NCBI RefSeq assembly: GCF_900112045.1
Contig: NZ_FOJW01000021.1
Location: 1 to 36,384, forward strand
DNA: 36,384 nucleotides
Reading direction: 5' to 3'
Origin: Lentibacillus halodurans
Lineage (GTDB): Bacteria > Bacillota > Bacilli > Bacillales > Amphibacillaceae
How positions within the stretch are numbered: position 1 is the stretch's first letter; every line of letters begins with the position of its first letter. Below, one piece after another: positions 10,097 through 24,022 of the stretch. The position numbers were made by a program, and so were the translations under genes. A model generated the notes under the pieces. It was not told the origin of the DNA. It worked only from the letters and a program-made list of their open reading frames with translations, and did not search any database.

Positions 10097-11269
10097 TTAA
10101 TAGAAATCAGGGAAATATGTCTGCCGGTTCGGAATAATGTTTTCCATTCGTTCGATATGTTCTTGACTGCCACGAATTAATCCTGCACGATATAACTCAG
10201 CCGGTCGTTTGTAGCCAAGGAGCATGGATGTCAGCTGCTCCAAACCGCAATGAATGCCACTTTCCAGTCCAGTGCTGTTCTGCAAATGCGTCACGTTTGT
10301 GTCAGAGCCGATTTGTGACAGCTGATAAACACCGCTGTTTTCCGGTAAAAACCGATCGTCAATATGTAATATAATGGATGCATTTGTTCCGCCATGAAAC
10401 GGATATTGCTTTAAAAATGCCAAAACATCGACAATACGTGCCATGAAATAGGGATTGATTTTCTGATCAAACTGCGGTTCATCGACAATCAGCGAAAGGT
10501 TGTCATTTTCCGGGACGACCATTTCGACCGTTTCCGCCATTGAATCATGGTTGGCGATAAATTGCAGCAGCAGCTTTTGTGCATTCAGTGTGTTGTACAC
10601 CAATTCATGAACGGTCACTTTTTCTTCTTTTACTTTGTAAAGGATGTACCCTTGCGCCTTGCCGCCTTCGCTATAGGCAACAGCTTTAAGCCAATCCCCT
10701 TTCAGAACACGCTGCTCCCACCACGATGCGTCACGGACAAGCGTCCCATTAAACGTTTTGGCATATTCTGTGTAAATCGTGTGCAGAATCGCCATGTCAT
10801 TCTTTATGCGGCGGATATATCCGCTTGTATCCCATTGTCGCTTTAAATGAGCCATCGGGATCTGATATTCCTTTTCCGAGAACGCATGCTCCCAGCCATA
10901 TTTCCGGTAAAAAGCAAACGAAAACGGATGAAGAAAGGATAAAGTTTGTCCATGTTGCCGCATATCGTGCAGTGTATGATACAGCAGTTGTTTCACCGCT
11001 CCCTGCCTGCGATACTCCGGCCATGTCGCCACAGAACATATCCCACCCATTTCAAACACTTTCCCGTTCACATAACAGGAAAGCGGGATCAGGTGCAGTT
11101 TGGCCGCCAGCTGATCATCTTCCATCCACCCCCATATAATGTGCCGTTTCGTTTCTTCTTGTTTCTTTTTCAGCGCATCCTCTGTCAGGTCATATTGAAA
11201 AGCGAATTGCGACAACTTGAAAATCGCATCAGCATCTGTTTCTGCAAATAACTGTTTAACCTCTGCCAA
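10097..11269 (-). CDS. Eis-like GNAT N-acetyltransferase
   Basis: A 390-aa protein with the three-part layout of the Eis family: an N-terminal GNAT domain with the acetyl-CoA loop (VATWPEYRRQGAVKQLL, about residues 80-97), a second degenerate GNAT domain, and a sterol-carrier-like C-terminal domain. It ends in DFY; Eis proteins use a C-terminal carboxylate next to an aromatic residue in catalysis. Eis enzymes acetylate amines such as aminoglycosides or peptides; the substrate here cannot be told. The start is the TTG at 11267-11269, with a GGGGGAG site upstream. A single-gene unit on the minus strand, with a terminator-like hairpin on its upstream side. Confidence 0.85.
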   Translation of the reverse strand: MAEVKQLFAETDADAIFKLSQFAFQYDLTEDALKKKQEETKRHIIWGWMEDDQLAAKLHLIPLSCYVNGKVFEMGGICSVATWPEYRRQGAVKQLLYHTLHDMRQHGQTLSFLHPFSFAFYRKYGWEHAFSEKEYQIPMAHLKRQWDTSGYIRRIKNDMAILHTIYTEYAKTFNGTLVRDASWWEQRVLKGDWLKAVAYSEGGKAQGYILYKVKEEKVTVHELVYNTLNAQKLLLQFIANHDSMAETVEMVVPENDNLSLIVDEPQFDQKINPYFMARIVDVLAFLKQYPFHGGTNASIILHIDDRFLPENSGVYQLSQIGSDTNVTHLQNSTGLESGIHCGLEQLTSMLLGYKRPAELYRAGLIRGSQEHIERMENIIPNRQTYFPDFY

Positions 11270-11395: not shown

Positions 11396-11414
11396 TCTAT
11401 TAACGTTTTGAGAA
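11396..11414 (+). repeat. Left direct repeat, candidate attL
   Basis: TCTATTAACGTTTTGAGAA, identical to 13723-13741 in the same orientation, next to the terminator-like hairpin at 11345-11378. No tRNA or tmRNA end is recognisable at the site. Confidence 0.72.
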
Positions 11415-11733
11415 ATATACTTTCTAATTCTAAGGAGAACCAAATCCTTAAAATCCTTTTATATCAATAACCAATAAAGTTATAATTAGATAAAAAAGTA
11501 TAAATCTGTATAGAAAATGATGTAATTTGGACCAACTTGAACCAATGATAGATGTTAGTTGAATACAATATTAATTATTCTTTTATATCTAACCCATAGC
11601 TCTTACCATTAACTTCAATAATGTATTAAATTTAATTTATTATTTAGCTCAACATGCCGATATAGCTACCGAAATGATGACTCCTAAGACTTTTTACTAA
11701 CGTACCCGTTAATGGAATAAGAACAAATTTAGA
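11415..11733. other. AT-rich noncoding left arm of the integrative element
   Basis: About 320 bases with no ORF worth calling. It contains the candidate arm-type site at 11531-11545 and AT-rich sequence with several stops in each frame. Confidence 0.5.
11531..11545 (+). repeat. Candidate integrase arm-type site (left)
   Basis: ACCAACTTGAACCAA, identical to 13676-13690. Placed about 135 bp inside the left direct repeat, as expected for arm-binding sites of Tn916-like or phage tyrosine integrases. Confidence 0.55.
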
Positions 11734-12114
11734 TTAGATGTTTTCATAAATTTCTATCAGTGAACCAGCAGGGTCTCTAAAATGAGCTACTTTAATACCC
11801 CAATCTTTTTGCTCAGTAGGCTCAGTTATAAAATTCACTTTTCCTTTTAATTCTTGATGTTTTTCTTCAACACTATTCACTTTAAAAATCAAAGCTGTTT
11901 TATCTACCTTATCAATCAAAGTTACATATTCCACACCTATTGCTTCAACCATTTGTTTACGTTTAAAAATTCCTAAAGTACAACCGTTAAATTTAAAGTC
12001 AGCATAATTGGAGTTTTCATTTCCCCAAGACAATTCAAATCCCAACACATCTTTATAAAAAAAGAAACATTCTTTATAGTTATCAACAAGTAACCGAGTA
12101 TGTGTAAGTTCCAT
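11734..12114 (-). CDS. VOC (glyoxalase/bleomycin-resistance fold) family protein
   Basis: A 126-aa protein with two beta-alpha-beta-beta-beta modules typical of the VOC superfamily: an N-terminal TRLLVDNYKECFFFYKDVLG and a C-terminal VAHFRDPAGSLIEIYENI with the usual DPxGxxxE end. VOC proteins include glyoxalases, dioxygenases and drug-binding proteins; the substrate cannot be inferred. The ATG at 12114 follows an AAACCTCCCG region on the plus strand, that is, a CGGGAGG ribosome site on the minus strand. It lies 39 bp after the HHH gene in the same direction, so the two may share a transcript. Intact, unlike other genes in this element. Confidence 0.85.
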   Translation of the reverse strand: MELTHTRLLVDNYKECFFFYKDVLGFELSWGNENSNYADFKFNGCTLGIFKRKQMVEAIGVEYVTLIDKVDKTALIFKVNSVEEKHQELKGKVNFITEPTEQKDWGIKVAHFRDPAGSLIEIYENI

Positions 12115-12153: not shown

Positions 12154-12612
12154 TTACTCAAACCATGCCTTTATAGGTCTATTTTCAGGAAAACCATTTA
12201 TTTCTCGATATGCCTTTCTTTCTTCTGTAAAATCAAACCACTGTTTACTGGTCTTAGGGTTGTTTGCATAGTTAATCACACAACGAATTTGGTCTTCAAC
12301 ACAACTATCAATCCATACACCTAATTGTTTTTCTAATTGGTCAAAAAGTTGAGCAGCATTCTTGTCCTTAATTTCCGATAGAGATAATATGTTCAACTTA
12401 AAAACCAACTTTTCAGCTAATTTATAACCAATAGAAGGAACAGTTTGAAATTCAGCCAATCCCTTTAAAACCTTTGCTTTTGCAAGTGGAATGTATAACA
12501 TATTGGCTATTTGTTCTGTATTAAAAGTACGTATTTCGCTTATTTTTACTTTAGATTTTCTTAGTTTTGCTTTTTCTTCATTTGTTAATGGTAATTTGGT
12601 ATTTGAATCCAA
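12154..12612 (-). CDS. Helix-hairpin-helix protein, Cdd1/'pathogenicity locus' family
   Basis: A 152-aa soluble protein. Residues about 50-75 (AKVLKGLAEFQTVPSIGYKLAEKL) form a helix-hairpin-helix-like segment. The later part (SCVEDQIRCVINYANNP and TEERKAYREINGFPENRP) matches what I know of the Cdd1 family (Pfam 'pathogenicity locus'), found scattered among Firmicutes with unknown function. HHH motifs usually bind DNA without sequence preference. A GGAGAGGAG site precedes the ATG at 12612. Upstream of the VOC gene in the same direction. I am fairly sure of the family, not of any role. Confidence 0.8.
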   Translation of the reverse strand: MDSNTKLPLTNEEKAKLRKSKVKISEIRTFNTEQIANMLYIPLAKAKVLKGLAEFQTVPSIGYKLAEKLVFKLNILSLSEIKDKNAAQLFDQLEKQLGVWIDSCVEDQIRCVINYANNPKTSKQWFDFTEERKAYREINGFPENRPIKAWFE

Positions 12613-13048: not shown

Positions 13049-13658
13049 ATGTTAGCAAATGATTTTGCTCGTTTAGTGAAAACACGTGGAGAGAACCCCC
13101 CTAAACGAAACAAGGCTTTATCTATTACAGATTTTAAAAAGCTTCGTAATTATTTACAGCATCCAGAAGATGAATTTAACTTACTTGTATTACTTGCATT
13201 AGAAACGGGTATGCGACGTGGAGAACTACTAGCAATAAGACCAGAGAGCCTTTATGAATATGGTATAGAAGTTAGACATTCGATTAGTCCTACTTCTGAT
13301 GATACTTCATTAAAGATACAAAATGCATAACGTGATGTTTCTATAAACAAAGAAGTCTACGAGCTTATTCGTAAAATTCCTGTTAAAGAAAATGGTTATA
13401 TTTTTAGCTTTGGGGGTTTTAAGCAATCAGAGCTATTAGCGAAATTATTAACGGAATTAAACATTAAAAACGACTTTTCACGGTCTAAGAGATACGCATG
13501 CATCTTTTTTATTTGCTCAAGATATAGATATTGCTTATGTATCAAAACGGTTAGGACATATAAATATTCAAACAACACAAAATTATTATCTGGAATTAAT
13601 GCCAGAAAAAAAGCACCAGCAAGATGCCGATGCTTTAAATCTGTTAAGTGCTTTGTAA
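13049..13658 (+). pseudogene. Tyrosine recombinase (phage/ICE integrase), broken C-terminal part
   Basis: Coding homology begins at about 13049 with TRGENPPKRNKALSITDF and LLVLLALETGMRRGELL, which holds the first catalytic Arg. A nonsense codon (TAA, 13328-13330) follows KIQNA; homology continues as RDVSINKEVYELI, then shifts frame near 13470 into HGLRDTHASFLFAQ and VSKRLGHINIQTTQNYY. The second Arg, both His and the nucleophilic Tyr are all still written. The N-terminal arm- and core-binding domains are missing: a stop lies 18 bp upstream. Three lesions (truncation, nonsense, frameshift) make it dead. It ends 64 bp before the right direct repeat, the usual int-att arrangement. Confidence 0.88.
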
Positions 13659-13690
13659 GGTTCAAGTTGATTTGAACCAACTTGAACCAA
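13659..13690. repeat. Candidate integrase arm-type sites (right), inverted plus direct
   Basis: GGTTCAAGTTG (13659-13669) is the reverse complement of CAACTTGAACC, which lies within the direct copy ACCAACTTGAACCAA at 13676-13690. They form a short palindromic cluster directly after the integrase stop and just inside the right direct repeat. Confidence 0.55.
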
Positions 13691-13722: not shown

Positions 13723-13741
13723 TCTATTAACGTTTTGAGAA
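13723..13741 (+). repeat. Right direct repeat, candidate attR
   Basis: TCTATTAACGTTTTGAGAA, identical to 11396-11414. A perfect 14-bp palindrome, ATTGATATATCAAT (13707-13720), lies directly before it and may belong to the recombination site. Confidence 0.72.
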
Positions 13742-14304: not shown

Positions 14305-14489
14305 TCAATCGATAATCACTTCCATAACGTCATCAAATGGAATCACTATGTCATCTTCATGCTCAAATCTCAATCGAGCAAATGTATCGACCATAAGTAA
14401 CTTGCCAAATAGCCCCTTGTGCACATTTTCAATCGTTTCACACTCCCCCTGTGAATCCGGGCTTTGTTTATTAGATATTTTAAATTCAT
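14305..14489 (-). pseudogene. Tiny ORF coupled to the nuclease gene, frameshifted (uncertain)
   Basis: The stop of the nuclease gene overlaps an ATG (ATGA, 14486-14489), starting MNLKYLINKARIHRGSV. In another frame the same strand has an open protein-like stretch (NVHKGLFGKLLMVDTFARL then DDIVIPFDDVMEVIID) ending at 14305. Joining them across the GGGGG run near 14448 gives about 61 residues. The 185-bp length is not a multiple of three, so one frameshift is needed. I do not recognise the product; its acidic hydrophobic end looks genuinely coding. It may be an extra small component of the neighbouring system. Confidence 0.42.
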
Positions 14490-15487
14490 TTATTAGCTAA
14501 GGCTTTTAAAATATGCAGATTTTCAATCATTGGCTTACTAAAATTAGAATACTTAACAAAATAAGATGCAAGATTCTTTTTAGCTGTTTCAATAAGTTCT
14601 TCATCAAAATAAGATATGTCTATATATTCAACTTCCCCATATCTTGCTCTATAAAAAGCAATTTGCTTAATGTTTAAATATTGAAATGAATCATCTATAA
14701 AGTAATTTTCGTCTGCATTGTTAATGTCCAAAGAGATTTCATTAAGTAGAAAATATCCCACTATTTGAGCAACCTCTTGCCAGTTATAACCAGGGTTTTT
14801 TCCAGTTTTAAAATCATATAGTGTTCCATTAATGATCACATCACCGTCTGCACCTCCTACAAAAGCAGAGGAAACACCGAAATTAGGATTGTAGATGATT
14901 TCACTGATTGGTCCGATTGTTGGGATGAACTTTTCTTGAAACACATCACATAGTTGTTCCAAATCTTTAATGACTTCATCCTCTGGATCATCAAAAAACG
15001 ACTCTTCTAAAAGGCTAGTTGGAGGAAGTCCAGAACGGAAAATGCGTTCAAGTTTAGCTAAGAAACAAACATCTAAAATCAATTCCTTGATATCTCGGTT
15101 GTTGTCACAGAATGCCTTTAATCTTTTAATGTTTTTCTTATATTTTTTTTGGAGTTTCGCCTCAATAGAATGATGGTTTTTAAAGTATCTTGATAAGACC
15201 ATCACTCCACCCTTAGCTGTTAAATTTGAGTAGGATTCAATCCTGTTTTTTTTAACTGTACGGGCCAGCATGATTCTTGCTAAATAATCAAAAGCTATTC
15301 CAATAATTACAGAATTATCCCTTTTAACTAGGTCGTAGGGAACTAATGCTCCATAATCAGTTTTAGAAAATGCTTCTTTGCCAGAGATTGTTTGAAATGA
15401 TTTCTTGTTTGGGATAAATTCCCTTAAAATCGTTTGAAACTCTTTTTGATTAGGTCCTGAACCCTTTAATAAACTAGTGAGAGACAT
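14486..15487 (-). CDS. RecB/Cas4-type PD-(D/E)XK nuclease-like protein
   Basis: A 333-aa soluble protein. Near the middle it shows the core of the PD-(D/E)XK fold in its RecB form: GGAD (Asp214), then YDFKTGK (Asp225, Lys227) eleven residues on, then a QxxxY motif (Gln241-Tyr245). These would bind metal and cut DNA. The N-terminal 190 residues are helical and basic and have no family I can name. The start ATG at 15487 has a perfect AAAGGAG site. It follows the ABC ATPase gene by about 225 bp on the same strand, with a short repeat between, so it may be a separate transcript of the same locus. Likely the effector of a defence-type system; inferred from motifs and neighbours only. Confidence 0.68.
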   Translation of the reverse strand: MSLTSLLKGSGPNQKEFQTILREFIPNKKSFQTISGKEAFSKTDYGALVPYDLVKRDNSVIIGIAFDYLARIMLARTVKKNRIESYSNLTAKGGVMVLSRYFKNHHSIEAKLQKKYKKNIKRLKAFCDNNRDIKELILDVCFLAKLERIFRSGLPPTSLLEESFFDDPEDEVIKDLEQLCDVFQEKFIPTIGPISEIIYNPNFGVSSAFVGGADGDVIINGTLYDFKTGKNPGYNWQEVAQIVGYFLLNEISLDINNADENYFIDDSFQYLNIKQIAFYRARYGEVEYIDISYFDEELIETAKKNLASYFVKYSNFSKPMIENLHILKALANK

Positions 15488-15532
15488 ATTTTTCTCCTTT
15501 ATGCACTTTTAAGTATTCTGCCCTTAACTTAA

Positions 15533-15597
15533 CAACAATTACTTCAATTATGGCCCAATTTGGGAAGAGAATTTATTCCTGATAAATGCCCGAATTG
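15533..15597 (+). repeat. Dispersed short repeat, copy 1
   Basis: Contains CAACAATTACTTCAATTATG and TTCCTGATAAATGCCCGA. It aligns with the copy at 34695-34757 (CAACAATATGGCC, TTCCTGATAAGCGCCCGA). It lies between the ATPase and nuclease genes. Confidence 0.55.
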
Positions 15598-15713
15598 AAC
15601 GATTTCTTTACCTTGATGCATTAAAAGAAATTGCACTTAATAAAGCTACACCCAGTTAACAAATCCTTCCTGGGGCACAAATTTCTTAATGGTAATACAT
15701 TAATAAGATTTCT

Positions 15714-18566
15714 TTATCTTGCAATCTTTATTTCTGGCAAATATATTCTTTGATCAGTAATCCATTTTTCTGGTAAATATTCACTGACAACAGGTCCTTC
15801 TTCTTCAAGTCTATCAAAATGTAATACTCCACAACTTTCTTTATCAAATTCCCAAAGAGGTCTACTAGCTAATATTAGCTTGTTCGCGAAATTAATATCG
15901 CTGGTGGAAATAATAACTTGTTTTTCTTGTGCTATATCACAAATCAAAGATACTAAAGCATCATCCCTTAGACTATCTAACATCTGAATTGGATCATCTA
16001 GAATTATAGTATCTAAGTTTGACTTGTTTTTATCAGAAATTGATTGTTCATTAGCTACTTGTGATAAGAAAATAGATAAGCCTAATAAAGAAAGTTGACC
16101 ACCACTAAACGCAAATGTACTATTTGAATTGGTGTTTTCGATATAGTGCTCCAAGTCATTTTCAAATTTACGCGGAATTGGTCGGAATATTAAATTTGTT
16201 CTTTCTCTTAGGCTTGGTACAACTGCATCAGACATTATAGTTTTCCATGGTGACTCATCTGAAAGAATCTCGAATATAGTTGAAATTCTAGTTGCCATCT
16301 TCCCAATTTCTTTATTAGTTTCGTCCGCTTGAATTTTTCTTTGATTCATCTTGTCTTCTTTTAATTTCTCAATATTCGCGTTAATCTTTTCAATTTTTTG
16401 GCTTAATTCTGCTTTAGTATCCAATAATTCAATGCTTTGTTCGATAGCATTTAAAAATTCTTCTACATCGTTAAAACTAGCTAAGGCATTAAGTAAAATT
16501 TCTTGTTGACGAACGTAGTGATTATATAATTCATTCTTAATTTTTTTAATAGCAACCGAGAAGTTACTTGATTCTAATTCTTGTAATTGTGATTTAATAT
16601 TACTTTTCATGTCTATGAAAAAATCCATTATATAATTTTCATTCAGATTTTCTTTATATCCAAAATCTGCTGCTTTACTTAGAATATTACTTTTAATTTT
16701 ATCTATTTGATTTGTAATGTAATTACGTTTTTTAACATTATTGTCATATAAATCCTTTTCCGAATTGACTAATTCGTGAAGAGAATCGTACTCTTCTTTT
16801 GTTTTCCTACTTTTTCTCTATATTAGCGAGTACATTTTTTGCTTCCGCCTCACTTGACTCATTAGATCTAAGTAATCCTAAAAACAACTCCTCACTTAAA
16901 TTTTCAGCTTTTATCTTATAATAGTTAAGCATAGGCTGTAAAAAAGTTCTCAAGAATTTATTTTCTTCTTCCATGTCTTTTATTATCTTTTCAGAATCTC
17001 TTAAAGCCTTTTCTTTATCTTCTCTTAAAACCGTTAAATTTTTTATTTCTTTAATTTTATCTTTTATCTTTGTAAACTCACTATTTAACTCTAATAAAGC
17101 ATGTATACTTCTTTCCTTTTGTTTTTTTATAGATTGCATTAATTGTTCCTCAGAAAGATGATTCACTCCACATAAAGGGCACTGTTTATTTGACACATTT
17201 TTGGAAAGTACATCGAAAGATTCTTCTATTTTATTTTGTTCTTCATAGATATTATGGAATCTGTCATCAAACCCGGCCAAGCTGTTTTCCAATGTATTAA
17301 GTAGTTTTTTATTATTTTCATCGGAATTTTCACCTAACCATTCTTTTACTTCGTCAATTCTCTTTTTGTGTTCTTCAATACTCACTTTATAACTAATAAA
17401 TTTTGAATAAGCTTTTTCAATCTCGTTTCTGTCAGTATTGAGTTTATTCAAGTTGTGTTTAATTTTGTTATTCTGTTTTAATATCTGATTCATTTCACTT
17501 TTTTTAATTTCTATTTCCCCAAATATTTTAGGATGATTTTGTACCTTTAATTTTAACTTTCTTTCTCTTTGAACATTTGTTCTTGGTTATCTTTTTCAAC
17601 ATTGAGTTTGCTAAAAAGAGTTCTAAGTACTTGAATTTCTTCATCCATATTATTAAGGCTATTCTCTAATTGTTCTATTTGCTTTTTTCTATTATACTCT
17701 TTTTGTAAGGTTAATTTTAATTCCTTTTCGAGTTCTTCAACCGATTTTGCAGTTTCATTTTCCTGTCTTTCAGAATTCAAATTTATGTTCTGCTTACGTA
17801 TTTGATTTATGAAGCCATTTACTGTTCCCTTTCTCTCAGTAATTTTATTGAGAACATTCTTCAGCCACTTTCTCCATTCATCTACTTCTGACAATACAGA
17901 CATATTATTATTAGGTCTTAATGGCAAGGTTATGATCGTATCCATAGTCTTTTCTATTTCTGTTATCTTCGACCTAAAGTTTTCTAGGAGTCCGGTTTGA
18001 TCTTTTTCACTTATTTTATTCAATCTGTTTTCAAGATCTGTAAATTGTGACCTTTCATTTTTGAGTTGATCATCCAATTCTTTTACTTTATTATCTAAAA
18101 GGGGGGCTAGATTTTCTAATCTATCTCTTCCATTAGCCAAAGCTAACTCCTGTAGTTTTGCTTGAGAAAGCGAATGCGCCCATAATAAGTCATCTCTATT
18201 TATAGAGCTATCAAAAAGTGAATCAATTAGTGCACCAGAATCGTAAACCCCGGCTTCATTTCTTATTATTTTTTGTATTTTGTTACTGGATACTTCTTTA
18301 AAGTATCCAGTTATTTGAGTTTCTATGTCTGGATTGATTAATGATCTAATATGTGTATTCCTTGCCCTATTCCATTCTTCCTTATAGGGTATGTACCTTG
18401 CTATATTATTGTTAAAAAGCCAATCCACCGCATCTTGAAGTGTAGTTTTTCCTCTACCATTTCTGCCATATACTACTGTTAAATTTTCAAAGATATTTAG
18501 CGATTGCTTTCGAGAATAAATTCGGAACCCTTCTATATCTAGTTTATTAATTCTGTACTTTTTCAA
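15714..18566 (-). pseudogene. Rad50/SMC-like ABC ATPase with zinc hook, two frameshifts
   Basis: Three consecutive reading frames encode one protein of about 950 aa. The first part (18566-17553) has Walker A GRNGRGKT (34-41) and a Q-loop region followed by coiled coil. The second (about 17560-16807) carries coiled coil around a CPLCG zinc hook at about residue 461. The third (about 16805-15714) has the signature FSGGQ (about 821) and Walker B IILDDPIQMLD, then a TSD switch. This is the Rad50/RecN-like layout of DNA-tethering ATPases. Frame changes fall at about 17553-17600 and at the A5 run near 16812. The total length is a multiple of three, so the shifts cancel. The start is a TTG at 18566 with GAGGAGG eight bases upstream. 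It follows two small genes 31 bp upstream. The Walker B has Asp-Asp where many have Asp-Glu. Confidence 0.85.
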
Positions 18567-18597
18567 TTCACATCCTCCTCATTCTTAAACAAGTTAG

Positions 18598-19128
18598 CTA
18601 TTCGATTTCACCATTCTTAGTTTTTTTAATGGAATACCAAGGGTTAAAACAGGTGTTAACAACTTTCTCAGCAGTATTTTTTATGTCCATATCCTCTGGT
18701 AACTCTAATAAAATCTTTCTAAAGTAACGGTTGTCATCTTTCCAGTTTTTTAACCAGGTATTAACTTCAGGGGTGACATTTCCTTTCACTAAGACTATTG
18801 CAAGTTGGGAATAACTATATTCTGGACTAATAGAAGAAAGTGTTTGAGTAATAATTGGAGGATAATAATTATTTTCACTCATATCATCATAAACTTGATT
18901 TTTTCCTGTTATAATACCAATAATGAAACCATGAATTCCTGTTTTCCCGTACAATATCCAATTTATAGGGTGTCCGTAATTGTACGTATCTATATCCGAT
19001 TCTATAAATTCAACTTCACTAGGCAATTTGGAATGATAATTTGAATCATTAGATACCAAAGTAAACTGGTCCTTTATACTGTTATATAAACTCCTGGTAA
19101 AACCACCATATTTATCCTCTTGAACCAT
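18598..19128 (-). CDS. Unknown protein (176 aa), second gene of ATPase operon
   Basis: Soluble, mixed alpha/beta-looking protein without signal peptide or membrane segment; I do not recognise the family. It is rich in Asn, Tyr and Ser, with hydrophobic strands in GIHGFIIGIITGKNQVY and YSQLAIVLVKGNV. The start ATG at 19128 shares one base with the upstream stop (TAATG), so translation is coupled to the gene before it. It ends 31 bp before the ABC ATPase gene and is on the same strand. Tight linkage to a Rad50-like ATPase suggests it is a partner subunit. Position and size loosely resemble the small components of Lamassu or ABC three-component systems, but no motif supports either. Confidence 0.62.
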   Translation of the reverse strand: MVQEDKYGGFTRSLYNSIKDQFTLVSNDSNYHSKLPSEVEFIESDIDTYNYGHPINWILYGKTGIHGFIIGIITGKNQVYDDMSENNYYPPIITQTLSSISPEYSYSQLAIVLVKGNVTPEVNTWLKNWKDDNRYFRKILLELPEDMDIKNTAEKVVNTCFNPWYSIKKTKNGEIE

Positions 19129-19667
19129 TATGGTCGCCTCGCTCTCATTGGAGGTTTTGTAAAATCTTGATCATTAAGAAATTTTTCTAACTCATCAACC
19201 TTAATAACATGAATGTACTTATATTCATTTGGGAATCTTTTTTCTACTGCTTCTAGAACTGCTTTAATTAAATTGTTTATATAGTAATAATATTGAACGT
19301 CAATAACTATAATATGACGATGCGTTGGCTGAATTATAACGCCGTCAAAAGTCATAGCTATACCGTTGGCTATTTTATCCTCAGGTACTGTCGGTTTAAA
19401 TTTGAAAATATGAGCTGATATTGGATTTTCTTTAAATTGTTTACCTGCAATTGTTAAATTAGGGGCAAATTCATTTGGATTTTGTATTAATCCGATATCC
19501 TCAATGTAAAGCTTATGCAACGCTAAGCCTAAGTTAGAATCGTTAAATTTATTGTTACTATCTAGTTCTGGATATTTATATACATGATTATTCTTATTGA
19601 GCGCCTTTATAGCTTCAAAGTTTGAATGTGCCGTTGAAAGCTTTTCGATTCCAGAATTGAACTCCAT
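19128..19667 (-). CDS. Unknown protein (179 aa), first gene of ATPase operon, possibly truncated
   Basis: Soluble protein I do not recognise. It has a beta-rich middle (GIAMTFDGVIIQ, RHIIVIDVQYYYYINN) and a helical C-terminal part ending in PPMRARRP. The ATG at 19667 lacks a good ribosome site, and its first codons overlap the last recognisable residues of the AbrB transporter, in another frame. The junction between island and transporter must be here, so the true N-terminus may have been lost and the first ten or so residues may be transporter DNA. Its stop overlaps the next start (TAATG), so it belongs to one operon with the next protein and the ABC ATPase. Confidence 0.55.
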   Translation of the reverse strand: MEFNSGIEKLSTAHSNFEAIKALNKNNHVYKYPELDSNNKFNDSNLGLALHKLYIEDIGLIQNPNEFAPNLTIAGKQFKENPISAHIFKFKPTVPEDKIANGIAMTFDGVIIQPTHRHIIVIDVQYYYYINNLIKAVLEAVEKRFPNEYKYIHVIKVDELEKFLNDQDFTKPPMRARRP

Positions 19668-20529
19668 ATATCAACTTTTGTCCATATAGAAAATATAAAG
19701 CTGATTCCTAAGCTCAAGCCTATAAATGACAGTAGTAAGAGTACTCCAAGTTTTTTGATGTTCCATAAAACCTTAAGAGACTCAGGGTCGAACCGGAGAC
19801 CTATAGAAGCACCTATCAACACCTGTCCGAACCCCGCAACCAGCAAAGGTACTTCTATCATACCTGCAAAGTTCCAAATTACTGTTAAAATAGTAGAATA
19901 TAATAGTGCTCCAGCAGGCATCGGGAAAATTCGGTAAAGAAATAAGGAAATTAATATTATTATTAATAAGGAGATAAACGACTCCTGAATTTTAGGCAGA
20001 TCTTCCATAATTGATGTTGAAGTTGATCGACTGATCCCCGCACCTACAAAAAGGGGAATAAAAGTAACAATAAAATCATTCTTGCAGAGTGAAATGCTGC
20101 TACAATACGAATGTCTGCACCATTGGTATCTGCAAGACCTAATACTTCAGAAGCACCACCTGGAATAAATGAAAATATCGCTGTTTTCAAATCTAAATTT
20201 GTTCTTTTATAAAGAATATATCCAAGTAATAGCCCACTTCCAAGTGTAGCAATCACTCCAAACAAAATAGCAAATCCAAACGTATGGACAGCTCCCCACA
20301 GAACATCGATTTCTAACATATTCCCAAGGCTCAACCCAATAAGACCTAAGGCTATAGGAAATAGATGTTTATTCTTTTTTCGAGGTCCAATGGTTAAACG
20401 ATAAAAAATCCCTGCCGCTAAAGCACCTAAAAGCCACCCTGCCGGAACGTTAAAATGATTAAATATATAGCTTAGAATAAGCACCAATGGCCAAAAAACA
20501 TACTGACTATTAAAACTAATTATCTTCAT
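19649..20529 (-). pseudogene. AbrB-family (GntR-permease-like) membrane transporter, frameshifted and truncated
   Basis: The N-terminal half (20529-20044) has the AbrB pattern: GWLLGALAAGI, IALGLIGLSLGNML and FIPGGASEVLGLA. A missing G in TTTTTG(G)TAGGTG near 20046 shifts the frame; restoring it joins FPFL to VGAGISRSTSTSIMEDL and the second half, with GWLLGA's repeat counterpart MPAGALLYS and IGASIGLRF. Homology stops at about 19649 (KVDIWSSIL), losing roughly the last 60 residues of a typical 350. The missing end is not found on the far side of the island. It may once have served the carboxylate locus on its right; a terminator separates the two. The start is the ATG at 20529. Confidence 0.82.
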
Positions 20530-20640
20530 CAACGCACCGCCCCAGTGCTTGTCATTCCAATTGTTCCTAATAGAATATCAAATAATACAGCTATATGGTG
20601 AAATTATAATAGAAGGTTCCAATAAAACAAAAGAGTAATA

Positions 20641-20683: not shown

Positions 20684-21652
20684 TTACTCTTCAAGAACTT
20701 CTCTATTAAATATATTTCGCGGCTCATTCTTAACAAAATATTGATGAACGTTATCAATCGATCCATTCAGGAAGTTGTTGAATGTTTCCTCTGTCTTCCA
20801 GCCAATATGAGATGTAATTAGGGTATTATCAATGGATCGAAAAGGATGGTCTACGGGCAGTGGTTCTTTTTCAAAGACATCTAATCCTGCTCCAGCTATT
20901 TCTTTGTTTTGCAGAGCTTGCATGAGTGCCTGCTCCTTAACAACTCTCCCGCGTGACGTATTAATTAAAACTGCACTTGGTTTCATAAGAGCGAAATGTT
21001 CCTCTTGCAGCAAATTGGTCGTTTCAGGAACTAAGCGCACATGCAAACTAACAGCATCTGATAACCTTAACAAATTATGTAAAGATGTATATTGCACGCC
21101 TTCTTTAGATGCTCGCTGTTCCGTTAATGTTGGACCCCACGCCATCACATTCATTCCAAAAGCCTTGGCCATTTTAGCTACAGAACAACCGATTTTTCCC
21201 AATCCAATAATACCAAGGGATTTCCCCCTAAGGTTTGTTCCGATGATTTCCGGCCATGCATTATTTCGCATCGCCCGATCTGTCTCAGCAACTTTTTTAA
21301 TTAGGTTAAGCATGTAAGCAAACGTCAATTCGGTTACTGCTGCTGTTGACCCCCCAGGTGTTCTCGCTACCGGAATACCGGCTTGATTTAAGGCTTCCAT
21401 ATCCAGGTGAGCCACACCCGTACCTGTCTGAGCGATTAACTTCAGATCCGGCAGGCATTCGATCAACTCTTTGTTAAACTGTGTTCTTTCACGTATTGGA
21501 AGCACCGCATCAACATCATGCAATCGATCTACAAGTTCATCAAAGGATGGTTTATCTGTGTATACGGCGACATTTGAAAAAGCCTGCAAGCGTTCCAATG
21601 AGGGATGGTTTGTCATATATTTTTCCCAATCATCAAGGATAACTGTTTTCAC
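20684..21652 (-). CDS. D-2-hydroxyacid dehydrogenase family protein
   Basis: A 322-aa NAD-dependent oxidoreductase of the D-isomer 2-hydroxyacid dehydrogenase family. It interconverts a 2-hydroxy acid and a 2-keto acid. The substrate domain flanks a Rossmann domain with GIIGLGKIG (about 147-155). Catalytic residues are visible: Arg in NTSRGRVV, Glu in EKEPLP and His in TSHIGWK. The start is the GTG at 21652, one base after the TAG of the RraA gene, so translation is coupled. Last gene of the operon before a terminator. With the Ldh-type enzyme upstream it may handle the opposite enantiomer of the same hydroxy acid, as known for the two sulfolactate dehydrogenases of Chromohalobacter. Confidence 0.9.
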   Translation of the reverse strand: MKTVILDDWEKYMTNHPSLERLQAFSNVAVYTDKPSFDELVDRLHDVDAVLPIRERTQFNKELIECLPDLKLIAQTGTGVAHLDMEALNQAGIPVARTPGGSTAAVTELTFAYMLNLIKKVAETDRAMRNNAWPEIIGTNLRGKSLGIIGLGKIGCSVAKMAKAFGMNVMAWGPTLTEQRASKEGVQYTSLHNLLRLSDAVSLHVRLVPETTNLLQEEHFALMKPSAVLINTSRGRVVKEQALMQALQNKEIAGAGLDVFEKEPLPVDHPFRSIDNTLITSHIGWKTEETFNNFLNGSIDNVHQYFVKNEPRNIFNREVLEE

Positions 21653-21653
21653 G

Positions 21654-22616
21654 CTATGCTCTACCTGCCTTTACTAATTGATTACGAATATATGCGTGAG
21701 CTGCTTCGGTATTTCCTATTACATCTCTTTCTCTTACTTCATCTCGTTCCTGCTTTTCGAGAGCCTTATCTAGTGTTTCGTTTTCTCGTTCCTTAGGAAT
21801 AACAGTGACACCATCTGTATCACCAAGAATTAAATCTCCAGGATGGATTGGTACACCTCCACAAGATATCGGTTCACCTGTTTCGCCAGTGCCATGTTTG
21901 TCACTAGCTGCCACGGTTGTCCCGCGACAAAATACTGGATAATTCAACGACTGAATGCCTTGTATATCTCTCACAACACCGTCAATAACTACACCAGCAA
22001 GCCCCATCGTTTTTGCTAATCCGATTACAAAATCTCCGCATATTGCATTTTGTTCATAGCCTTTGCCATCTATAATCAGAACATCCCCCGGATTTGCTTC
22101 TTCAATGGCCTTAAGAACGAGCAAATTATCAGCTGCCCGTACACGCACTGGATAGGCTGGTCCGATGACAAATAAATCATCTGTGATAGGCTTAATAGCG
22201 CTGTCCAAATTTGTTAATCCTTGAAGGGCATCAGACACGCTCGTTGTCTGAATCCCTTCCCAGGCCCCTTTACCATTCCAACCATTACTCTCCTGATCAT
22301 ACTCGCTCAAACCAATTTGTTGTTCCATCAAAGGTACATGGTGTTGTGCACCAAAAAGATCCGTATCATCGATGTCACCCGATATCGATTTTCGTGGGAA
22401 ACTAACTTTGATCGATTGAGCTTGCTCATATGGGAATATGTCTACTTCGTTCAAATCACATTGATAAATATCAGCGATTTTTTCTCTTGAAAATAACGTG
22501 CTTTTTAACACTTTTTCATAGATTGTTTCATCATTGAAAATGACATCAATTGTTATATAAAAAGGACCTGCGTTTTTACTTCGAAGTACATATGCTACAT
22601 CTTTTAGTTTAGTCAT
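21654..22616 (-). CDS. DUF4387-RraA fusion protein (aldolase/decarboxylase-like)
   Basis: A 320-aa protein made of two domains usually encoded apart. Residues about 1-105 match DUF4387 (KLKDVAYVLRSKNAGPFYIT, ending DTDLFGAQHHVPL), a small partner of AtuA-type proteins. Residues about 125-315 are RraA-like, with GDVLIIDGKG and VIDGVVRD (Arg-Asp of the pyruvate and metal site). RraA-fold enzymes cleave 4-hydroxy-2-oxo acids or decarboxylate oxaloacetate. The ATG at 22616 overlaps the end of the AtuA gene by 8 bp and has GGAG six bases upstream, which I prefer over the earlier in-frame start at 22649. The fusion implies that the AtuA/DUF4387 step and the RraA step act in sequence. Confidence 0.85.
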   Translation of the reverse strand: MTKLKDVAYVLRSKNAGPFYITIDVIFNDETIYEKVLKSTLFSREKIADIYQCDLNEVDIFPYEQAQSIKVSFPRKSISGDIDDTDLFGAQHHVPLMEQQIGLSEYDQESNGWNGKGAWEGIQTTSVSDALQGLTNLDSAIKPITDDLFVIGPAYPVRVRAADNLLVLKAIEEANPGDVLIIDGKGYEQNAICGDFVIGLAKTMGLAGVVIDGVVRDIQGIQSLNYPVFCRGTTVAASDKHGTGETGEPISCGGVPIHPGDLILGDTDGVTVIPKERENETLDKALEKQERDEVRERDVIGNTEAAHAYIRNQLVKAGRA

Positions 22617-23988
22617 GAACGACTCCAACCTCCTCGACTTGAACTTCAAATAATTCTAAAGGATCATCGAGTTCAACTACGTGGTTTAAGCTGAATCGAT
22701 AAACTTCACCGACATAGATATCCGGTGGAGAAAAGGGGAATGCAACATTGCCGGAAATAGTTAGCCTGCCTTCAAAGTGACTATGCAAAACCAGGGTTCG
22801 AGCAGCAGCAAGAAATGCTTTAGAACGCTCCGGGGAATCTGCAATTAAGTCCAAAAGCAAGGCAATTTCATGAGGTTTTCTTGGGGCAAACTCAAGAGGC
22901 CCCAAAACACCGTCTAATCCATAACGATGGATGGTCAATTTATAATCGTCGGAATGAATTGTCGGGTCAATTGATTTTATTTTTCGTTCTAATTCCTGTT
23001 CGATGAATGTTTGGTAGTCATCGATCCGATTGATTAATATAGGGTCACGAATTCCTGCCAGGCAAATTGATCGATAACCAATTTTTTCAACGCCTTCTAA
23101 TTTGACTGTATAAGGATTATTAGTGATGAACTTGGAGCCGGTTACCTTAACTTTTCTTTCATTTACTTGAAGATATTGTGCATTACTCGTATCAAGGATT
23201 CCGCCAGGCTCATATAAATGAAAAGGACTGACATTTTCGTACATATTATGTGCAGCAACATTTTTCCAAGGTAATGTCTTATCCGGATTAGGTGTCTCAA
23301 TTGTAAAGTTCTCATTTCGAATATAGGTCATAATGCAATCGTGGCTTTTAGGGTGTGCTGTTGCAGCGCCGCATTCAATAATTTTGGCTGAATGCCAAGC
23401 TGTATCCGGATTGACTCCTTGCCATAAAGGATAAGCAGCAAACACAGAAGCATCTGTCGCCCGACCGGTTACAATAACATCGGCTCTTTGCTCCAAAGCC
23501 TTAATAATAGGCTCAGGTCCCATCATCCCGACAACTCGGTGCAAGGATTGTAATGTTTCAGAAGATAGATTCTCAGAAGAACCGATTGGATGTATCTTGC
23601 CGGCTATACATTTTTCTATTAAATCTGGACGATTGGGCTCACTATAAATCCATGCGACTTTAAAAGAGTAATCATTTTCTCTAACAATATTACTGATAAT
23701 ATGCCGGAAGTCATCTACACCTTTGTTACATCCGGATCCCCCAGCCGAACCAACGATAACCGGTACGTTATGTTCTTTCCCCGCATTAATCATAAGACGA
23801 AGATCCCTTTTAACAGCTTCACGAGACACAAATGACTCTTCACTACCTAAATAATATGGACCAGCATCTGTCGAACCGGCGTCACAGGCAATAAAGTGTG
23901 GCTTTTTTTCCATGCAACTATTTAATGATTCTTCGGGGAATCCGTAACCAAGAATCCCCGAAGTTGAAACAGCGCGTACTTCGTGCAT
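22609..23988 (-). CDS. AtuA-family (DUF1446) acyclic terpene utilisation-like protein
   Basis: A 459-aa cytoplasmic protein of the AtuA/DUF1446 family. It opens with VRAVSTSGILGYGF, then FIACDAGSTDAGPYYLG and VPVIVGSAGGSG, and later VTGRATDASVFAAYP, all conserved blocks of the family. AtuA is required for citronellol/geraniol breakdown in Pseudomonas but its reaction is undefined; many homologues pair with DUF4387 proteins beside carboxylate transporters, suggesting a hydratase- or isomerase-like role on a hydroxy or unsaturated carboxylic acid. The start is the ATG at 23988 with AGGAGG eight bases upstream. Its end overlaps the DUF4387-RraA gene. Confidence 0.88.
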   Translation of the reverse strand: MHEVRAVSTSGILGYGFPEESLNSCMEKKPHFIACDAGSTDAGPYYLGSEESFVSREAVKRDLRLMINAGKEHNVPVIVGSAGGSGCNKGVDDFRHIISNIVRENDYSFKVAWIYSEPNRPDLIEKCIAGKIHPIGSSENLSSETLQSLHRVVGMMGPEPIIKALEQRADVIVTGRATDASVFAAYPLWQGVNPDTAWHSAKIIECGAATAHPKSHDCIMTYIRNENFTIETPNPDKTLPWKNVAAHNMYENVSPFHLYEPGGILDTSNAQYLQVNERKVKVTGSKFITNNPYTVKLEGVEKIGYRSICLAGIRDPILINRIDDYQTFIEQELERKIKSIDPTIHSDDYKLTIHRYGLDGVLGPLEFAPRKPHEIALLLDLIADSPERSKAFLAAARTLVLHSHFEGRLTISGNVAFPFSPPDIYVGEVYRFSLNHVVELDDPLELFEVQVEEVGVVHD

Positions 23989-24022
23989 GTTGAGCACCTC
24001 CTGAAATTTTTCTTTATTGTTT

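What the first reader, a model, noticed from the sequence alone, without database searches (positions are those of the whole stretch)
14305..19667. Candidate multi-gene defence system: two unknown proteins, zinc-hook ABC ATPase and RecB-type nuclease
Seen: two coupled small genes (TAATG overlap), 31 bp, a Rad50-like ATPase of about 950 aa with a CPLCG hook, then a PD-(D/E)XK protein with GxxD, DxK and QxxxY, and a small coupled ORF. Known: ATPase-plus-nuclease sets with small partners include Lamassu and ABC three-component systems. Inferred: this is a related but possibly undescribed architecture, because I cannot match either small protein to the known partners. The island sits inside a broken transporter gene and is AT-rich, as transferred defence loci often are.
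Basis: partly seen in the sequence, partly recalled or inferred. Interest (0 to 1): 0.78.

Follow-up and report, generated by a model that had tools for sequence, protein, structure and literature searches.

The report
Decayed Lamassu-type defence operon remnant
The cluster is most likely the wreck of a known kind of three-gene bacterial anti-virus system, whose killer protein has lost its active part and whose motor gene is broken, lying next to an unrelated nuclease gene, so it is not a new multi-gene defence system.

Summary
The first small protein (19667-19128) is the tail of an effector: it matches residues 356-531 of a 531-aa protein in an intact operon of Salipaludibacillus neizhouensis (48% identity). 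The second is that operon's middle component (45%). The ATPase is LmuB-like and lies in three pieces over two frame changes. Effector, middle component, ATPase is the Lamassu/ABC-3C plan, seen as a close chain in 67 of 80 related loci. In the window the effector's first ~355 residues (SIR2-like on weak evidence) are missing, at a junction with an AbrB-type transporter gene. The RecB-type nuclease is intact but separate: in none of the 80 ATPase loci, and none of 11 nuclease loci examined holds a full ATPase of this kind. The last small ORF is a YolD C-terminal fragment. Verdict: decayed member of a known kind plus an independent nuclease; the lineage is mildly new, since its middle component and effector escape the family libraries I scanned.

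The parts
19128..19667 (-). C-terminal domain (179 aa) of a Lamassu/ABC-3C-type effector; the N-terminal part is missing
   Evidence: 48% identity to residues 356-531 of the 531-aa effector of L040; no N-terminal part found elsewhere in the genome or window
18598..19128 (-). Middle component (176 aa), divergent; ORF uninterrupted
   Evidence: 45% identity over 144 residues to the L040 middle component; shares a conserved Arg-Lys core with 40 other middle components; no Pfam, PADLOC, NCBIfam or PHROG hit
17553..18566 (-). ATPase piece 1: N-terminal P-loop part (LmuB-like)
   Evidence: AAA_23 9.9e-13, LmuB 7.5e-15, matches L040 ATPase residues 1-338 at 40%
16807..17493 (-). ATPase piece 2: coiled coil with CPLCG hook, in another frame
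   Evidence: matches L040 ATPase residues 354-576 at 30%; LmuB 5.2e-9
15714..16628 (-). ATPase piece 3: C-terminal part with signature and Walker B (FSGGQ, LDDPIQ); homology extends up to 16769
   Evidence: LmuB 6.7e-15; matches L040 ATPase residues 607-956 at 50%
14486..15487 (-). Intact RecB-like PD-(D/E)XK nuclease (333 aa), an independent gene
   Evidence: PADLOC PDC-S61 7.2e-12, phrog_34041 5e-64, conserved motifs, homologues without this ATPase
14305..14487 (-). C-terminal fragment of a YolD-like protein
   Evidence: 61% and 58% identity over 36 residues for the two best matches in the genus; the L149 ORF is PF08863 YolD, 4.9e-20; 65% over 34 residues to it
19607..20532 (-). Truncated, frame-broken AbrB-family transporter gene on which the effector fragment abuts
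   Evidence: PF05145 in two ORFs of different frame; homology ends near 19706 at about residue 288 of 360
13049..13660 (+). Probable tyrosine-recombinase remnant with an inner stop and two frames
   Evidence: six-frame reading, judged by eye; weak Phage_integrase match to the first piece only (E 0.074)

Best explanation
The stretch 19667-15714 is the decayed remnant of a three-gene Lamassu/ABC-3C-type operon (effector, middle component, Rad50-like LmuB ATPase). The intact ancestor probably worked as other Lamassu systems are thought to: a hook-bearing ATPase dimer senses foreign or abnormal DNA and, through the middle component and the effector's C-terminal docking domain, switches on the effector's N-terminal enzyme, here probably a SIR2-like NAD-consuming domain, so that the infected cell stops growing or dies. 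Shown: gene identities, order, overlap and loss. Inferred: sensing, docking and NAD loss. In the window this machine can hardly work, because the effector keeps only its C-terminal domain and the ATPase frame is interrupted twice. The RecB-type nuclease at 15487-14486 is a separate, intact gene, next to a YolD fragment as some of its relatives are next to YolD genes.
For: L040 (Salipaludibacillus neizhouensis) holds an uninterrupted 531-aa effector, 188-aa middle component and 959-aa ATPase with 1-bp and 4-bp overlaps. All window pieces map to it in order: effector residues 356-531, middle component, ATPase 1-338, 354-576, 607-956. LmuB profiles score each ATPase piece and the L040 ATPase at 2.1e-34 over residues 6-906. 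67 of the 80 kept loci show an effector of 350 aa or more, then a middle component, then an ATPase, with gaps of at most 120 bases. Pfam names relatives as ABC-3C: MComp1 in 5 of 5 and 3 of 4 middle components of the 80 loci that I scanned (the miss is L040); CTD4, CTD5, Cap4 or SIR2 in 2 of 4 and 7 of 8 effectors (the miss is L040). The effector fragment starts where transporter homology stops (19661 and 19706). Nuclease: 0 of 80 ATPase loci, no match in the L040 genome, 0 of 11 nuclease loci with a full relative of the ATPase.
Against: Only one close intact relative was found, so the reconstruction leans on L040. The middle component and the effector tail match no Pfam, NCBIfam or PHROG family with confidence; the tail has one weak PADLOC match, PDC-S01, E 0.004. 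Similarity to other middle components is weak: no support from the single sequence, best E 0.0034 among 66, hhalign probability 7% and P 0.005 with two sequences. The effector tail shows no significant similarity to any of 66 other effectors (best E 0.09). The SIR2 reading of the lost domain is weak: no Pfam hit, plain alignment to the SIR2 effector of L041 not significant (z 1.9), one of 2000 shuffles outscored it by HMM, and the best of 200 shuffles came close by hhalign (29.5 against 30.5). One short ATPase-N match (E 0.0006) lies in a 130-aa phage ORF of nuclease locus L007. The frame changes could be assembly errors; no reads were available.
Confidence: 0.9

Rival explanations
1. A functional four-gene system in which the 179-aa and 176-aa proteins dock the RecB-type nuclease, as a replacement effector, onto the ATPase.
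For: The nuclease is intact, on the same strand and 226 bases downstream of the ATPase; the middle component is uninterrupted; the docking domain is retained.
Against: ATPase broken in two places; 0 of 80 ATPase loci hold the nuclease; 11 loci of the nuclease's relatives, in prophage, plasmid and chromosome, lack such an ATPase; an in-frame stop lies two codons before the 179-aa ORF's start and I see no ribosome-binding site.
Confidence: 0.03
2. The frame changes and truncation are assembly artefacts of an otherwise intact locus.
For: AT-rich DNA with many homopolymer runs; no reads were available to check.
Against: The missing effector part is over 1 kb and was not found in the rest of the genome; the ORFs 10097-11269, 20684-21652, 21654-22649 and 22609-23997 outside the AT-rich stretch are long and uninterrupted, whereas the transporter and recombinase at its edges are broken too.
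Confidence: 0.04
3. The lost effector domain was not SIR2-like but another enzyme fold.
For: No family hit for the intact relative in Pfam, PADLOC, NCBIfam or PHROGs; single-sequence fold failed (pLDDT 35); plain alignment and HMM scores near those of shuffles.
Against: GAGxS, NLD, HG and VFVG elements in SIR2 order (motif knowledge recalled); hhalign covers 215 columns, residues 23-277, scores above all 200 shuffles (narrowly; the best shuffle aligns 17 columns) and above the 65 other effectors that are not in the profile, of which the best reached 22.6.
Confidence: 0.25

Closest known systems
Lamassu / ABC-three-component (ABC-3C) systems
   Same: gene order effector, middle component, Rad50-like ATPase; closely spaced genes; CPxCG hook; LmuB-profile matches; composition as described in PMC10586767 (section 9 read)
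   Different: the window copy lacks the effector's N-terminal domain and has a broken ATPase; middle component and docking domain are outside the Pfam families MComp1 and CTD; the Walker B residue after the first Asp is Asp (DDP in 66 of 67 ATPases by a pattern), where that paper reports Gln in place of Glu as general for LmuB
Salipaludibacillus neizhouensis operon L040 (3794-8831)
   Same: closest intact relative of all three genes (48%, 45% and 30-50% identity)
   Different: full-length 531-aa effector; next to a Peptidase_M78 gene and a weakly PIN-like gene, no nuclease found
PADLOC candidate PDC-S61 / phrog_34041 (PD-(D/E)XK protein)
   Same: the nuclease matches both and has the motif residues
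   Different: nothing found; it is a separate gene, not part of the ATPase operon, and its function is untested
SPbeta-type prophage YolD / Y-family polymerase neighbourhood
   Same: 4 of 11 nuclease loci carry YolD beside the nuclease gene, three of them with an annotated Y-family polymerase; the window has a YolD fragment
   Different: the fragment is downstream on the same strand, not divergent; I did not search the window for a polymerase gene

Membership tests
Lamassu / ABC-3C | Rad50/SMC-like LmuB ATPase | tested here: met
   LmuB profiles on all three pieces and on the intact relative, 2.1e-34; in the window the frame is interrupted
Lamassu / ABC-3C | hook motif CPxCG or similar (many but not all members) | tested here: met
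   CPLCG in 17493-16807, CPFCG in L040; a simple pattern finds CxxC[GAS] in 20 of 67 related ATPases
Lamassu / ABC-3C | small middle component between effector and ATPase | tested here: met
   position and 45% identity to the L040 middle component
Lamassu / ABC-3C | middle component recognisable by the known MComp1 profile | tested here: inconclusive
   no Pfam hit; weak alignment of the Arg-Lys core; the component is lacking in some systems
Lamassu / ABC-3C | effector with N-terminal enzyme domain plus C-terminal domain | tested here: not met
   the window keeps only the C-terminal domain; L040 has a long N-terminal part. So the window locus is filed as a remnant, not as a working member
Lamassu / ABC-3C | anti-phage or anti-plasmid activity | not testable with these tools
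   needs an experiment
SIR2-type effector (Lamassu with SIR2) | SIR2-like domain at the effector N-terminus | tested here: inconclusive
   hhalign P 0.0022, motif order kept, 0 of 200 shuffles reach it though one comes close; no Pfam hit, HMM score beaten by 1 of 2000 shuffles
PDC-S61 nuclease | profile match over most of the model and PD-(D/E)XK motifs | tested here: met
   7.2e-12, model 42-250 of 253; D, D, K, Q, Y invariant in 9 aligned sequences
YolD-like protein | PF08863 domain | tested here: inconclusive
   the fragment itself has no Pfam hit at E 0.1, but 65% identity over 34 residues to a PF08863 protein

The most novel reading that the evidence does not exclude
The truncated docking domain and middle component are still expressed and have adopted the adjacent intact RecB-type nuclease as a new, separately encoded effector, a snapshot of effector swapping in Lamassu systems.
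Probability: 0.02. Interest if true: 0.55.

Novelty: new member of a known kind. Interest (0 to 1): 0.2.

Why it matters
It shows that a tidy-looking gene cluster can be a composite of a decayed defence operon and an unrelated nuclease. It also points to a sparse Lamassu/ABC-3C lineage (window and S. neizhouensis) whose middle component and effector escape the family libraries scanned here, so surveys that rely on them may undercount it. Loss of the effector's enzymatic half with retention of the docking domain is a plausible first step of decay, but one case proves nothing.

Tried and rejected
Searches for the small proteins that found nothing: plasmids, viral contigs, genome contigs with the 176-aa protein (14 pattern matches, none confirmed). 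In 100 relatives the 176-aa protein matched 2 of 100 genomes, its own and one (G033) in which the match lies in a citrate-synthase-like ORF with no related genes in the 3.2 kb fetched; rejected as chance, although phmmer gave it E 4e-6. My notebook entry calls that match antisense; it is in the ORF's own frame.

ATPase searches: no plasmid match, none in viral contigs, 1 of 299 phylum genomes (its own) at E 1e-12. In the order 106 of 299 genomes matched at E 1e-4, mostly in open frames of about 1190-1260 aa, the size of chromosomal SMC. I fetched six other places: L034, L035, L038 and L039 show effector-size ORF, middle component and ATPase; L037 shows the last two and the tail of an effector-size ORF, the rest being cut from the output; L036 (a 261-aa frame) was cut and not evaluated.

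More copies of the effector: 1 of 150 relatives of the S. neizhouensis genome, itself; 1 of 398 phylum genomes, the window's own fragment; no plasmid or viral match. Nuclease in viral contigs: none.

SIR2 profile: built from 23 SIR2_2 proteins chosen because they carry the GAGxS-type motif, plus L041, which therefore scores high by construction; of 30 loci fetched, six ORFs lacked the motif and were dropped, and one locus gave no ORF.

Papers: for PMC10586767 I saw passages and section 9; the others only as search listings. Statements on SIR2 motifs and NADase action, and the meaning of the label PDC, are recalled.

Full report
What is there. All genes of the finding lie on the minus strand. 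Reading along it: a truncated AbrB-type transporter (20532-19607), a 179-aa ORF (19667-19128), a 176-aa ORF (19128-18598, sharing a TAATG overlap with the first), a Rad50-like ATPase in three pieces (18566-17553, 17493-16807, 16628-15714), a 333-aa nuclease (15487-14486) and a short open frame ending at 14305. GC content is 0.27-0.36 from about 11.5 to 20.5 kb and mostly 0.38-0.47 elsewhere. Library searches named the ATPase as LmuB-like (Lamassu) and the nuclease as PADLOC PDC-S61; the two small proteins matched no family with confidence (PHROGs); the first had one weak PADLOC match, PDC-S01, E 0.004.

The intact relative. A scan of the genome-contig collection with an alignment of ATPase C-terminal parts gave 431 pattern matches, 152 confirmed relatives and 80 kept loci. 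The best, L040 from Salipaludibacillus neizhouensis, stands far above the rest (59% identity, E 8e-101; the next has E 2e-14, and the other 79 are 24-48% identical). It holds a complete operon: a 531-aa effector, a 188-aa middle component and a 959-aa ATPase, overlapping by 1 and 4 bases. The window's 179-aa protein is residues 356-531 of that effector at 48% identity. The 176-aa protein is the middle component at 45% over 144 residues. The three ATPase pieces match residues 1-338, 354-576 and 607-956 in order, with the middle piece in another frame. So the first small protein is not a novel partner but the tail of an effector whose first ~355 residues are gone; no trace of them was found elsewhere in the window or, at E 0.001, in the genome.

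The kind of system. In 67 of the 80 loci a simple rule finds an effector of at least 350 aa, a middle component of 165-235 aa and an ATPase over 700 aa in one chain with gaps up to 120 bases; the medians are overlaps of 17 and 11 bases, taken from the furthest possible start codons. The other 13 failed a cut; five of them begin at the edge of the held DNA. Five operons from genomes of the same order have Pfam MComp1 middle components (5 of 5), and of four effectors scanned two hit CTD5 or Cap4. Of eight effectors scanned from the 80 loci seven hit CTD4, CTD5, Cap4 or SIR2_2, and three of four middle components hit MComp1; the misses are those of L040. This is the Lamassu/ABC-3C family; its described composition of effector LmuA, small middle component LmuC and often hook-bearing LmuB matches (PMC10586767, section 9). 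The lineage of the window and L040 is divergent. Its middle component shows the near-invariant Arg-Lys core when aligned with L040 and 40 of the 66 other middle components (Lys invariant in all 42 rows), but profile support is weak, and its effector tail resembles none of 66 other effectors (best E 0.09). Membership therefore rests on the ATPase and on gene order.

The lost domain. The N-terminal part of the L040 effector carries GAGxS, NLD, HG and VFVG elements in the order seen in SIR2-like domains. Against a profile of 24 such domains, hhalign aligned residues 23-277 over 215 columns (P 0.0022); none of 200 shuffles reached its score, though the best came close (29.5 against 30.5, over 17 columns), and the 65 other effectors outside the profile scored at most 22.6; L041, the SIR2 effector above it, is part of the profile. 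Against this: no Pfam hit, one of 2000 shuffles beat it in an HMM search, and a plain alignment to L041 was not significant. I treat SIR2 as likely (about 0.7), not shown.

How the window copy came to be. Transporter homology runs to about 19706, near residue 288 of 360, and the effector match begins at 19661, so the two genes are joined within some 45 bases. The 179-aa ORF begins at that join; an in-frame stop lies two codons upstream and I see no ribosome-binding site. The rest of the transporter was not found in the window, so I cannot say that an island was inserted into it; a deletion or rearrangement that fused the two genes is as good. With the ATPase frame interrupted twice, the operon is very probably dead. 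The flanking recombinase and transporter look broken as well, while four ORFs outside the AT-rich stretch are long and uninterrupted.

The nuclease is a separate story. It is full length against its relatives, and the RecB-type residues D214, D216, D225, K227, Q241 and Y245 are invariant among 9 aligned sequences. It has relatives in 26 plasmid records and one phage, of which I opened five, and in 6 other genomes of 299 in the order, all of which I opened; the closest is 67% identical. Three of the five records are SPbeta-like or prophage-like, with YolD and a Y-family polymerase beside the nuclease; the other two are an Acinetobacter and an uncultured-bacterium plasmid. None of these 11 loci contains a full-size relative of the ATPase (one 130-aa ORF matched weakly), while 4 of 11 contain YolD. 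None of the 80 ATPase loci contains the nuclease, nor did the genome of L040 give a match (no positive control). In the window the open frame after the nuclease is a YolD C-terminal fragment, which fits the nuclease's own neighbourhood and not that of the ATPase.

Verdict. Remaining interest lies in a sparse Lamassu lineage whose small components escape the libraries scanned here.

Noticed in passing
11396-11414 and 13723-13741 (also 11525-11545 and 13670-13690): A perfect 19-bp direct repeat (TCTATTAACGTTTTGAGAA) and a 20-of-21 repeat flank a 2.3-kb stretch that ends in the recombinase remnant; possibly the ends of a small integrated element separate from the defence remnant.
   Followed up: partly
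12154-12612 and 11734-12114, minus strand: AT-rich cargo between these repeats: a 152-aa ORF with a weak RecR match and a VOC/glyoxalase-like 126-aa ORF.
   Followed up: no
L042, L045, L047 and many other loci: Many related Lamassu operons have a further ~350-400-aa ORF just upstream of the effector; two effectors scanned (L042, L047) are trypsin-like. This resembles the nuclease-protease pairs of PMC12799240, seen only as a search listing.
   Followed up: no
67 ATPases of related loci: A pattern reads Asp-Asp-Pro at Walker B in 66 of 67, so an Asp rather than the usual Glu, or the Gln described for LmuB, seems the rule in this set. The scan selected for DDP, so this is partly built in.
   Followed up: partly
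[not shown]
   Followed up: partly
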